NCBI RefSeq assembly: GCF_030362835.1
Contig: NZ_JAUCGQ010000001.1
Span: 1 to 64,000, forward strand
Direction of reading: 5' to 3'
Source: Cellulomonas alba
GTDB taxonomy: Bacteria; Actinomycetota; Actinomycetes; Actinomycetales; Cellulomonadaceae
Length of the DNA stretch: 64,000 nt
In this document: positions 1 through 3,550 of the stretch, one piece after another
Position numbering within the stretch: position 1 is the first letter of the stretch
How the letters are laid out: each line of letters opens with the position of its first letter
The notes under the pieces: generated by a model
Database searches by the model: none
What the model was told of the DNA's origin: nothing
What the model saw: the letters and a program-made list of their open reading frames with translations, nothing else
Program-made: the position numbers and the translations under genes

Positions 1-123
1 CTGCACACCGAGCTCGGCGACATCCCGCCAGCCGAGCACGAAGCGAACTACTACCGTCAGAACCCGGCCGTCACGACGGCCGAAACCAGAGAACCGAGCC
101 TCCACTGAACCCGGGGCGGTTCA
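1..123 (+). mobile_element. 3' end of an IS3-family insertion sequence (transposase C-terminus and right inverted repeat)
   Basis: Frame 1 is open from the window edge to TGA at 106-108 and encodes 35 residues beginning LHTELGDIPPAEHEANYY and ending EPSLH. This matches the C-terminal tail of IS3-family orfB (DDE) transposases, where an RLH..G..PP.E.E..YY motif follows the catalytic core. The stop is followed within 15 bp by CCGGGGCGGTTCA (111-123), typical of the right inverted repeat of such elements. RHS coding sequence begins immediately after, so the element probably interrupts the RHS gene. The rest of the IS lies left of the window. Confidence 0.72.
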
Positions 124-2123
124 GCGGCCGGTTCGACGCCCGTCGATGACACGTACACCGACTACGACAGTCAGGGGCTCGTCGACTACACGGCGAGCCG
201 GGACCCGAGCAGCGGCGCCGAGACAGGCCGACTCTCCACCGCCCATGACCAGTGGGGCCGGGTCACGGACTACACCGACGCCAACCACAAGGTGACTCAC
301 ACCACCTACATCCCCTCGGGCGCCCCCGGCGCCGGGTCAGTCGACATCGTGAGCGATGACCAGTCCTCTACGGACAACGACTACGACACCTCAGGCAACG
401 TCACGAAGCAGACCACCACGGTCGGCGGAGTTCCGTACGTGTACACCGCCACCTTCAACGGGTTCGGGGACCTGACCGAGCAGGGCATGCCCGGCAAGGT
501 GACGCAGAAGGAGTCCTACTCCCGCGATGGCCAGCTGACTGCGCTGGGGTACTGGGGGACAGCGAGCAACGGCGACCCGACGCCGATGCTCGCCTGGACG
601 ATCACGTCCGACGTCCAGGGCCGCACCATCGGCCTCGAGACCAACGCGTCGTCCAACGGCACCACGGTCGGCCGGACACTGACGTATGGGTATGACAATG
701 CGTCGCGGCTCCTCAGCGCCACCGACTCGCGCGGCGAGACGTGCCAGGCGCGGACCTACGGCTTCGACGTCAACGGCAACCGCACCGAGCAGGTGATCAC
801 CAGCTACGACGGCGACGACTGCACCAACAGCAGCGCCAAGCTCCTCAACGTCGACAAGAAGTGGAGCTACAACGACGCCGACCGGGCCAGCAACGAGGCC
901 CAGATCACCACGGACACCTACGACACCGACGCCAACGGCAACCCGACATCGACCACGACGCAGGCGGGTGGGACAACCGCCTACACGTTCGACGCGCTCG
1001 GTCGCGCCACGCGCGTTCCCGCCGGCGACGCACCGGCCAACCAGCAGGCCGAGACTCTCGGACAGAGCGGCACGGGCCAGGACATCACGATCGGCTACTA
1101 CGACACCGACGCCGCCCGCAGCATCACCTCGGGAAGCACGACCACGACGTACAAGCTGGACCCCTCTGGTCGGCGAGCGACCTCAACGGTGACCACACCC
1201 ACCGCGAACCCCGTCGACACGACGCGCGACTACGGCGACGACTCCGACAACCCCTCCTACGCCACCGCGGGCGCGGTCGTGAGCGTGACGGGTCGTCCAT
1301 CGGCGGTGACCTCGGTCTCACCGTCACCGGTGGTGTCGCCTCGCTCGCGCTCGCCGACCCGCACGGCGACACGGTCAGCTCGATGACAGTCCCGACCGAT
1401 GCATCCGGGGCGCTGCTCGGCGCCGTCGCGTGCTACGACGAGTACGGCAACCAGACCACCGACCAGAACGGCGACGCCGACGGTAACCCCGTCGACACCA
1501 GCACCAGGCTCAACACGGGTGCGCTCTCCTACGGATGGCTCGGCGCAAAGCAGCGCTCCGCCGACGGCTCCGGCCTCGTCCTGATGGGAGTGCGGCTGTA
1601 CAACTCGGTCACTGGACAGTTCACATCGATGGACCCGGTGCCGGGCGGTAACTCCACCGCCTACGCGTACCCGCAAGACCCCATTAACCAGTTCGACGTA
1701 AGTGGGCAGTGGGGAGTCAGGAAGTGGTGGCACAGGCACTGGAAAGCTGTCGCCATCGGAGTCGCGATCGCGGCACTGTTTGTGTTGGCGCCGGAAGCGC
1801 TGCCTGCAGTAGCTGCCTTTGCTGAAGACGCCGACGCAGCGTTCATGATCGTGAGGGCTGCGTCCACAGCTGTAGGCGACGACGGGGGCGCGATGGCGTC
1901 AGAGCGAGCGATCGGCTGGGCGGGACGAGTTTGGACCCGAGGGGGGCGTGCGATCCGGAGCAACCATGGAACCGGGCCTAAGATCGGCCTAAAAAGCCGC
2001 GGTGCGTCGCGGATCTATCGATCTCCCCAACTCAAGAACTACAAGGGAAGGTTTCCTTCCGGACGGGTCGCGAACTTTGAAAAGAGGGGCATTTCGAACT
2101 ACCACGTTAGGGCGCTCGAATGA
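124..2123 (+). pseudogene. RHS/YD-repeat protein with C-terminal tip domain, 5'-truncated by the IS and frameshifted
   Basis: Frame 1 is open from the IS boundary and shows YD repeats (YDSQGLVDYT, YDTSGNVTKQ, YGYDNASRLLSATDSRG, YGFDVNGNRTE, YTFDALGRATR). Around 1288-1293 similarity switches to frame 3, which continues GSSIGGDLGLTVTGG and reaches the conserved RHS end: YDEYGN, YGWLGAKQRS, MGVRLYNSVTGQFTSMDPVPGG and YPQDPINQFDVSG. One G missing from the GGG run at 1290-1292 would restore the frame. After the core (about 1707) come a hydrophobic stretch and a basic tip ending at 2123, with visibly lower GC, as in polymorphic-toxin tips. No start codon or secretion signal remains. The frameshift could be real decay or a sequencing error. 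Confidence 0.75.
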
Positions 2124-2410
2124 CAGCGGAAAACAAACCCAGACCCAACGTCACGGCGACCTTTCCCAGCGATTCTAGGTTCGCCGGCTTCGAGTTGCGC
2201 ATCGAGCGACCCCGTGACGAGCACGGCGGTGAAGCGCTCGACCGAGGCTGGGACATCTTGTATGAGAAGCCAGATGGTTCAGAGGCTTACAATCACTGGG
2301 CCGATACGTGGGACCAGGTGCTGCTTTATTTCGCAAAGAGCGCGCCGCCGGAGGCTGGTCCGCCTTGGGTTGATGTGGGGAAGTTCCGGGACGCGGTGTT
2401 TCCCCCGTAG
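2120..2410 (+). CDS. Small protein, candidate immunity protein for the RHS tip
   Basis: This 96-residue acidic, tryptophan-containing soluble protein (RGWDILYEKPDGSEAY, WADTWDQVLLYF) has no signal peptide or membrane segment. Its ATG overlaps the RHS stop codon (ATGA), so the two would be translationally coupled. A small gene directly after an RHS tip is the standard place for the cognate immunity protein. I do not recognise the family. Function is inferred from position and size only. It remains intact although the RHS gene is broken. Confidence 0.6.
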   Translation: MTAENKPRPNVTATFPSDSRFAGFELRIERPRDEHGGEALDRGWDILYEKPDGSEAYNHWADTWDQVLLYFAKSAPPEAGPPWVDVGKFRDAVFPP

Positions 2411-2412
2411 CA

Positions 2413-2980
2413 GTAGCCACCTGTGTGTATCCGCAGGATCGGGTTAACAGGTTTGATCTGGCGGGCAATTGGTGGCACTTGAAGAAGTTGGCGAAATAGG
2501 GTGGCAGGGCCACCCTGAACGCCGAGTTCATTCCTGGGTCGCTGTGCGCAGCTCTGTGGGGCGATCTCACTGGCGGCCGGAGCCATTAGCGCCGGTGCGA
2601 CGCAGCGTCTGGAGACTGGAGGAGCGCCGGCCCGACTGCGGCCGGTACGGCGGTCCGACTGCCTGCAAAGGGCGCCGGTAGTCTGTACGTCAGGGACGCC
2701 GTCCGGCGTGCTTTCGCGCGCAGGGTCCGTTGGTGCTGGCGCACAATGCTTCTCGAACACCTACAACCGCGTGTCACACCGGCAGCCAAAGCATCGACCG
2801 CGCACTTCGACGCCCGGGGGTCGGTACCGGCTCGTGGGTTTGACGAACGACCTCGACCTGGTGATCACCGGCGCGGACCGCGAGTGGATCTCTGTCGTCG
2901 GTGCGCCGCATGCGCCGCAGGCCGACGGCGTCGATCCGGAGTCCGGCACCTGGTTCATACGCGCCAGGCTCGACGGCTAG
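2413..2980 (+). pseudogene. Orphan RHS tip cassette, multiply frameshifted
   Basis: At 2422-2499 one frame reads CVYPQDRVNRFDLAGNWW followed by HLKKLAK and a stop. This is the same RHS core-to-tip junction as YPQDPINQFDVSG in the main gene. Other frames then carry further tip-like pieces: GRATLNAEFIPGSLCAALWG, AISLAAGAISAGA and NTYNRVSHRQ. A last open stretch ends at 2980. The pattern fits an older displaced tip cassette left downstream of the current one, as in rhs tip replacement. It is too decayed to assign a toxin class. The exact right boundary is uncertain. Confidence 0.55.
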
Positions 2981-3415
2981 CCCGGCGAGCTGCGGGTGGC
3001 CAACCCGCGATGGACAAGAACTGGCCAGAAACTGGCCACAAATTCGCCGCGAGCGGACTCGAGGTGTTCCGCGTTGGCGCGAGATCGAGCGATACTCGAA
3101 GGACGCAAGCGCCGGCTGATCTCGGCGTTTGGCCAGATGATGCGAGAACGCGCGAGAAATCCCGCGAGCCAGCGAGGGCCGGATTCGGCTCCCGTCTTTC
3201 AGGGGGACAGGGGTTCGAGTCTCCGCGGCTCGACCAGCCCCACACCCATGCGGGGCGACTTACCGGCGCCGGGGGTTTGCCTCACAAGGTGCTACGTAGC
3301 GACCTCAGACGACCATCAAGTGGCTGTTACGACGGGCTGTCGTCCGCAGCGGATGGCTGTCGTCCGTCCACGTCCGGCGCGGAGATGTTTCCCGAGATGT
3401 TTCCCGAACACGACG
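2981..3415. other. Non-coding or decayed stretch before the tRNA
   Basis: No convincing gene. An open frame ending at 3444 finishes with the repeated peptide EMFPEMFPE, encoded by a 12-bp tandem repeat GAGATGTTTCCC at about 3381-3404. It might be the last codons of a lost integrase-like gene, but I cannot show that. The stretch also contains the tmRNA-like sequence described separately and a short near-repeat (AACTGGCCAGA / AACTGGCCACA) near 3020-3040. Confidence 0.35.
3205..3236 (+). other. tmRNA 3'-end-like sequence, possible island attachment scar
   Basis: GGAC at 3205-3208 is followed by a T-arm: AGGGG (3209-3213), loop TTCGAGT (3214-3220), CTCCG (3221-3225). A 7-nt acceptor-like strand CGGCTCG and ACCA (3233-3236) follow. 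This GGAC/T-arm/acceptor/ACCA order is the 3'-end architecture of tmRNA. No matching 5' acceptor strand or tag-peptide reading frame was found in the preceding 400 bp, so it is not a complete gene. Integration at ssrA leaves a copy of the 3' end, which would fit the RHS/IS remnants to its left. One of five T-stem pairs is mismatched. Confidence 0.45.
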
Positions 3416-3470
3416 AAGCCCAGGTCAGCGACGTCCTAGAATGACTCCCAGAAGCCGCTGACCTGGGCTT
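3416..3470 (-). terminator. Long hairpin downstream of tRNA-Pro
   Basis: Perfect 15-bp inverted repeat, AAGCCCAGGTCAGCG at 3416-3430 and its complement at 3456-3470, with a 25-nt loop. It starts 6 bp beyond the 3' end of the minus-strand tRNA, so a tRNA terminator is the simplest reading. It lacks a clear U-tract and the loop is long for an intrinsic terminator. Confidence 0.5.
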
Positions 3471-3476
3471 TCGCGG

Positions 3477-3550
<74 letters not shown>

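What the first reader, a model, noticed from the sequence alone, without database searches (positions are those of the whole stretch)
1690..2410. RHS C-terminal tip with coupled candidate immunity gene
After the RHS core end (FDVSG at about 1692-1706) comes a lower-GC tip of about 140 residues with a hydrophobic stretch and a basic C-terminal part. The next gene overlaps it by 4 bp. I recognise neither the toxin nor the immunity family, so this may be an undescribed pair.
Basis: partly seen in the sequence, partly recalled or inferred. Interest (0 to 1): 0.65.

Follow-up and report, generated by a model that had tools for sequence, protein, structure and literature searches.

The report
Stranded RHS toxin tip and immunity gene
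This looks like the leftover toxin end of a broken bacterial weapon gene with its probable antidote gene next to it; the pair matches no catalogued family, which is usual for such tips, so it is a modest addition to a known kind of system.

Summary
Observation confirmed: FDVSG at 1692-1706, a 138-residue tip (1707-2120), and a 96-codon ORF (2120-2410) overlapping it by ATGA, with AGGG 7 nt upstream. Tip and ORF have 62% and 61% GC, against 74% beyond 3600.

Bases 1-123 are the end of an IS3-type insertion sequence, RHS homology starts just inside it, and the frame changes from 1 to 3 between 1266 and 1293. No other RHS repeat was found in the genome. The fragment probably lies in a small element bounded by a 43-bp tRNA-Pro repeat; a second core-end remnant follows.

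Neither protein has a relative beyond chance in Pfam, NCBIfam, PHROGs, PADLOC, PDB sequences, phage, plasmid and viral contigs, or 396-genome samples; for the ORF alone, also 85k species' contigs by pattern. That is normal here: 16 of 20 same-genus tips match no curated family.

Best reading: an orphan RHS toxin/immunity cassette. The toxin is probably a basic, cytoplasm-acting, nuclease-like domain blocked by a soluble acidic protein, now silent for lack of a carrier. Toxicity is untested.

The parts
1..123 (+). Right end of an IS3-type insertion sequence: transposase C-terminus (1-105), its stop TGA (106-108) and terminal inverted repeat
   Evidence: Exact copy at the end of contig C4; 91% identical over 35 aa to an annotated IS3 family transposase of a Cellulomonas plasmid; Pfam gave no match to the 35 aa
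124..1266 (+). 5'-truncated RHS/YD-repeat region, reading frame 1 (frame stays open to the stop at 1384-1386)
   Evidence: PF05593 above cut-off; aligned in frame 1 from 130-133 to 1266 with the RHS proteins of G840 and G026
1267..1292 (+). Stretch within which the RHS frame changes from 1 to 3
   Evidence: tblastn pieces 133-1266 (frame 1) and 1293-1706 (frame 3) match adjacent parts of one G026 protein; the same break with G840 (tblastx)
1293..1706 (+). RHS core end, frame 3, ending FDVSG (1692-1706)
   Evidence: TIGR03696 above cut-off; 54% identical to G026
1707..1949 (+). Tip, N-terminal part: aromatic/basic start, hydrophobic stretch (1746-1802) and linker
   Evidence: Hydropathy; predicted helical at low confidence
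1950..2120 (+). Tip, basic C-terminal part, the presumed toxin domain (57 aa); stop TGA at 2121-2123
   Evidence: pI 11.6; no relative found
2109..2112 (+). AGGG, ribosome-binding-like, 7 nt before the ATG
   Evidence: Sequence; no test of function
2120..2410 (+). 96-codon ORF, candidate immunity gene, ATGA overlap with the tip
   Evidence: no relative found
2428..2499 (+). Second RHS core-end remnant (YPQDRVNRFDLAG, 2428-2466) plus ten residues of another tip and a stop
   Evidence: Frame-1 translation; DNA similarity of 2417-2472 to 1657-1713 scores 31, reached by 1 of 1000 mononucleotide shuffles
3475..3550 (-). tRNA-Pro (GGG); its 3' 43 bases (3476-3518) are repeated exactly at G000:C3:839-881, taken as the two ends of the element

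Best explanation
The stretch 1707-2410 is an RHS C-terminal toxin/immunity cassette of the polymorphic-toxin kind, stranded on a broken carrier. As it originally worked (inferred), the tip sat at the end of a long secreted RHS protein, its basic C-terminal domain acted in the cytoplasm of a neighbouring cell, most likely on RNA or DNA, and the acidic 96-aa protein bound and blocked it in the producer. Shown: tip after an RHS core end, ATGA coupling, low GC, complementary charge, broken carrier. Inferred: toxicity, neutralisation, nuclease activity. Today the RHS gene has lost its 5' part at an IS3-type element and changed frame, so toxin delivery is probably dead; the immunity gene may still be read.
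For: RHS core model above cut-off directly before the tip. ATGA coupling and ribosome-binding-like AGGG. Same layout in same-genus RHS genes: GC-poor tips of varied sequence, and 5 of 29 tabulated tip rows (two places listed twice) have a next ORF at the same -4 overlap. pI 11.6 against 4.8. The next ORF is hydrophilic, unlike the membrane-type next ORFs (judged by eye) of the hydrophobic tips in L036, L159 and L047. Carrier broken: IS end and frame change. A second core-end remnant downstream fits cassette displacement.
Against: No homologue of either protein, so no conserved catalytic residues and no second example of the pairing. The 96-codon ORF by itself is only a 5% chance event. Codon-position signal is weak in the tip (p 0.18). 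Most tabulated same-genus tips (24 of 29 rows) do not have the -4 overlap. AlphaFold gave mean pLDDT 52.8 for the tip and 66.8 for the ORF, so no fold supports a nuclease.
Confidence: 0.6

Rival explanations
1. Pure decay: tip and ORF are remains of an old cassette that no longer encode a working toxin or immunity protein; their length and the 4-bp overlap are leftovers.
For: IS truncation and frame break upstream; a second, more degraded core-end remnant downstream; no other RHS repeat found in the genome to keep it in use; no relatives found in the collections searched.
Against: Tip and ORF themselves are uninterrupted, with intact coupling and a coding-like pattern in the ORF.
Confidence: 0.25
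2. The hydrophobic stretch is the active part: a membrane-acting toxin, the basic end being secondary.
For: 19 residues at mean hydropathy 2.26; several same-genus tips look strongly hydrophobic.
Against: Only one such stretch, near the start of the tip where other tips have their linkers; the partner ORF is acidic and hydrophilic (GRAVY -0.78), whereas the partners of three hydrophobic tips look like membrane proteins.
Confidence: 0.1
3. The RHS gene is intact in the organism and the frame change and IS junction are sequencing or assembly faults, so the pair is a live effector/immunity system.
For: The window begins at a contig start inside a repeat; no reads were available to check the frame change.
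Against: Two independent breaks; no RHS repeat elsewhere in an assembly rated 99.99% complete; the IS ends are seen at four contig ends, with a 4-bp target duplication in the other pair (read by eye).
Confidence: 0.1

Closest known systems
Orphan rhs-CT/rhsI pairs (Salmonella LT2 rhs-orphan; PMC3967940, abstract and passages seen)
   Same: RHS fragment without start and export signals, tip after a core end, linked immunity gene
   Different: [quoted passage not shown] here no other RHS repeat was found in the genome, and the truncation is at an IS end
Polymorphic toxin systems in general (PMC3482391, passages seen)
   Same: Variable C-terminal toxin joined to a conserved carrier, small immunity gene next to it
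   Different: Toxin and immunity match none of the profile families scanned above cut-off
RHS tips of the same genus (G026, G840, G828)
   Same: Same core end, low-GC tip, closely following small ORF, tandem cassettes in G828
   Different: Tip sequences do not clearly resemble this one: against 26 tips the best is L047 with 7.3 bits (nominal E 0.006 in that small set), over the Ala-rich linker and with a bias correction larger than the score; several partner ORFs look like membrane proteins

Membership tests
RHS C-terminal toxin/immunity cassette | Tip directly follows an RHS core end | tested here: met
   TIGR03696 37.6 bits against cut-off 32.5; FDVSG at 1692-1706
RHS C-terminal toxin/immunity cassette | Small ORF immediately downstream, coupled | tested here: met
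   ATGA overlap at 2120-2123
RHS C-terminal toxin/immunity cassette | Tip differs between related RHS genes and is compositionally distinct | tested here: met
   Best phmmer score to 26 same-genus tips 7.3 bits, in the linker; GC 0.618 against 0.741, third-position GC 0.67 against 0.86-0.90 in the RHS part
RHS C-terminal toxin/immunity cassette | Tip toxic, neighbour neutralises | not testable with these tools
   Needs expression
Functional full-length RHS effector | One open frame from export signal to tip | tested here: not met
   IS3-type end at 1-123, frame 1 to 3 change, no other RHS repeat in the genome
Orphan rhs-CT (Salmonella LT2 type) | Fragment lacking start and export signals, with linked immunity ORF | tested here: met
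   5' truncation at the IS end and frame change; coupled ORF
Orphan rhs-CT (Salmonella LT2 type) | Full-length rhs gene upstream in the same locus | tested here: not met
   The only RHS_repeat matches in the genome are at 670-741 and 928-1014 of this window; the assembly breaks at the IS
Any curated toxin or immunity family (Pfam-A, NCBIfam, PHROGs, PADLOC) | Profile match above cut-off | tested here: not met
   only sub-cut-off hits for the tip in Pfam (Wzy_C 15.7 bits against 31.7)
Known immunity-protein fold | Structural match of the 96-aa model | tested here: inconclusive
   Model pLDDT 66.8; no Foldseek match at E 0.001 or better in PDB or BFVD; best VIA Z 4.0, rmsd 4.1, 81 aligned

The most novel reading that the evidence does not exclude
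The last 57-68 residues of the tip are a so far uncatalogued, very small basic toxin domain, and the 96-aa acidic protein founds an immunity family of its own, both known so far from this one genome.
Probability: 0.4. Interest if true: 0.4.

Novelty: new member of a known kind. Interest (0 to 1): 0.25.

Why it matters
If the pair is active it adds one more toxin/immunity family to a very diverse arsenal, and shows such a cassette persisting, perhaps as immunity only, after its carrier was cut at an IS element. The control matters more widely: 16 of 20 RHS tips scanned from this genus match no curated family, so 'unrecognised tip' is not in itself remarkable here.

Tried and rejected
Profile scans: Pfam, NCBIfam, PHROGs and PADLOC gave nothing above cut-off for tip or ORF. 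PDB sequences: for the tip 12 matches at E up to 1, all one putrescine-binding protein, best 15.8 bits, E 0.097; none for the ORF.

Genome searches with the ORF: 1 of 98 relatives (own only); 5 of 396 in the phylum (own plus four at 17.6-22.7 bits); 8 of 396 in the order (own plus seven at 17.7-24.2 bits). Genome searches with the tip: 26 of 396 in the order (own plus 25 at 16.8-20.1 bits). That is more than the four or so expected at E 0.01 per genome; I lay the excess on the Ala/Arg-rich composition. In one search only up to 10 first-look candidates per genome were scored. With the tip's last 57 aa: 5 of 396 in the phylum (own plus four at 17.2-19.8 bits). I aligned these weak matches (the printed alignments were cut, so not every one was seen). 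Those seen were composition-biased or lay in unrelated frames: L070 looks like ribosomal protein S4 and L179 like a phytanoyl-CoA dioxygenase, both by recall. I treat all as chance.

Peptide-pattern scans: with the ORF none confirmed in genome contigs or viral contigs; with the tip none confirmed in viral contigs. A degenerate pattern for GWD-hydrophobic-hydrophobic-Y..PDG of the ORF gave 3 viral contigs (best 14.2 bits to the ORF) and 42 genome contigs. In 41 of the 42 the context is one family, mostly of Clostridia, that I recall as Eco47II-like restriction enzymes, and L105 differs; best score to the ORF 12.0 bits. Plasmids and phages by tblastn: no tip match; ORF matches at E 0.5 and 1 only.

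Structure: the tip model was too poor to search. The ORF model gave only tied, weak matches; one is a CdiI immunity protein (8ssm_D, Z 3.0, rmsd 3.7, 69 aligned), level with ribosomal proteins, so it counts for nothing.

Considered and dropped: the TGA at 106-108 as a premature stop of the RHS gene (it is the stop of the IS transposase); the tRNA-like 3' piece at 3176-3236 as the element's attachment site (it matches resident tRNA and tmRNA genes only loosely, while the 43-bp tRNA-Pro repeat is exact); RHS remains at tRNA-Pro in other species (no core, tip or ORF match at E 0.1 in L126-L157 and eight contig-end loci).

Full report
WHAT IS THERE. The window is bases 1-64000 of contig C1 (2.80 Mb) of an unnamed 3.80-Mb genome in 7 contigs. 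In frame 3 the RHS core end reads ...AYPQDPINQFDVSG, with FDVSG exactly at 1692-1706; NCBIfam TIGR03696 matches above its cut-off. A tip of 138 residues follows and stops at TGA 2121-2123. ATG 2120-2122 opens a 96-codon ORF to 2410, so stop and start overlap as ATGA; AGGG at 2109-2112 is a plausible ribosome-binding site. The tip begins with an aromatic, basic stretch, then a hydrophobic run (residues 14-32), and ends in a strongly basic part (residues 82-138: 13 K/R against 2 D/E, pI 11.6). The 96-aa protein is acidic (pI 4.8) and hydrophilic. GC of both is 12-13 points below the part of the window beyond 3600; the RHS part and the stretch after the ORF are also low (0.675 and 0.661), so the whole island is GC-poor and the tip a little more so.

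IS IT MORE THAN CHANCE. The ORF alone is not strong: an ATG ORF of that length near the stop arises in 187 of 4000 dinucleotide shuffles. The exact ATGA overlap, the ribosome-binding-like site and the coding-like codon-position GC pattern (p 0.010) add to it. A similar layout follows RHS tips in other species of the genus: 37 of 81 genomes, own included, have a match to the core-end query at E 0.001. I tabulated tips in 30 loci (L036-L064, kept from the 64 places listed, and L160). Of the 29 tip rows passing E 1e-5 (two places appear twice), 5 have a following ORF at the same -4 position and 24 do not.

THE CARRIER IS BROKEN. Two RHS proteins of the genus, from G026 (956-aa open frame) and G840 (2008 aa), align with the window as two collinear pieces: frame 1 from 133 (130) to 1266, then frame 3 from 1293 (1299) onward. 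The frame therefore changes between 1266 and 1293. Upstream, the in-frame TGA at 106-108 is not an RHS stop. The 35 residues before it are 91% identical to the C-terminus of an annotated IS3 family transposase on a Cellulomonas plasmid, and bases 1-123 recur exactly at the end of contig C4. Contigs C2 and C3 begin with the other end of the same kind of IS (for C3; for both). Read by eye, the C2 and C4 flanks share a 4-bp duplication (CTTG), so they form one clean insertion. That leaves C3 and C1 as the flanks of a second copy, without such a duplication (TGAC against GCGG). A second, independent sign that C3 is the neighbour: the 3' 43 bases of tRNA-Pro (3476-3518) are repeated exactly at C3:839-881 in the matching orientation. 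The simplest reading is a small element integrated at tRNA-Pro, holding about 0.7 kb, an IS copy and the RHS remnant, with the 5' part of the RHS gene lost at the IS (inference). No other RHS repeat was found in the genome. Whether the frame change is real or a sequencing fault cannot be told without reads.

A second core-end remnant, YPQDRVNRFDLAG, lies at 2428-2466 in frame 1, followed by ten residues and a stop. Its DNA similarity to the main core end is reached by 1 of 1000 mononucleotide shuffles. Tandem core-end/tip/ORF units occur in the genus too, for instance five on G828:C110. The locus thus looks like the usual RHS cassette displacement, partly decayed. The paper on C-terminal displacement (PMC2935791) was seen only as a search listing with the start of its abstract.

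WHAT THE PAIR IS. Nothing found resembles either protein beyond chance; the searches and their weak hits are listed under Tried and rejected. Limits: the collection scans find close relatives only, the tip was not scanned against genome contigs, and the genome samples are a few hundred species. As a control I scanned 20 tips of same-genus RHS genes (20 of the 29 rows; dropped were two L038 rows that repeat L160 places, the short L045, L051 and L055 tips, L056, L057, L063 and one more L160 tip). Four of 20 had a match above cut-off, three to the pretoxin HINT domain and one to HNH nucleases; 16 of 20 had none. A tip without a known family is therefore the rule here.

HOW IT PROBABLY WORKED. By analogy with RHS and polymorphic toxin systems (PMC3967940 and PMC3482391, passages seen), the tip would be carried out on the RHS protein and enter a neighbour, and the small protein would protect the producer. 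The basic domain and acidic, hydrophilic partner suggest a cytoplasmic nucleic-acid target; this is inference, at perhaps 40%. Three same-genus tips that look hydrophobic throughout have membrane-like partners (L036, L159, L047, judged by eye), which argues against a membrane target here. With the carrier truncated and out of frame, the toxin is probably silent, and unlike the Salmonella LT2 orphan (PMC3967940) no full-length RHS gene was found that could pick it up.

VERDICT. Observation confirmed, interpretation partly supported. It is an orphan RHS toxin/immunity cassette of unknown family: a new member of a known kind, of modest interest.

Noticed in passing
window 3476-3518 and G000:C3:839-881: The 3' 43 bases of tRNA-Pro(GGG) are duplicated exactly. 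G017 (C84) has the same 43 bases again 4.3 kb from its tRNA-Pro match, and G836 (C2) has 41 bases at 98% about 4.3 kb away, so tRNA-Pro looks like an integration hotspot in the genus.
   Followed up: partly
window 1-123; start of G000:C2 and C3, end of C4: Four contig ends carry the two ends of one IS3-type element; the C2/C4 flanks share CTTG, a 4-bp target duplication, while the C3/C1 flanks share none.
   Followed up: partly
window 3176-3236: A tRNA-like 3' piece (18.5 bits to the tmRNA model, below its cut-off of 47) that resembles resident tRNA-Ala genes only loosely; possibly an older attachment-site remnant.
   Followed up: partly
window 3416-3470: Inverted repeat of 20-nt arms (90% complementary, 15 nt apart) just beyond the 3' end of tRNA-Pro, terminator-like.
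   Followed up: no
window 2502-2980: Frames after the second core-end remnant look like pieces of a further tip and a small protein, interrupted; no family match above cut-off to 2735-2977.
   Followed up: partly
L160 (G828:C110:1-20000): Array of five RHS core ends, each with its own tip, followed in most cases by a small ORF.
   Followed up: partly
L049:1750-2271; L040, L042, L050 tips: Same-genus RHS tips with an HNH nuclease end (L049) and with pretoxin HINT domains.
   Followed up: no
L036 and L159 tips: Strongly hydrophobic tips with membrane-like partner ORFs, candidate membrane-acting toxin/immunity pairs; the tips match no family (the L159 tip is the same place as the scanned L037 tip).
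   Followed up: no
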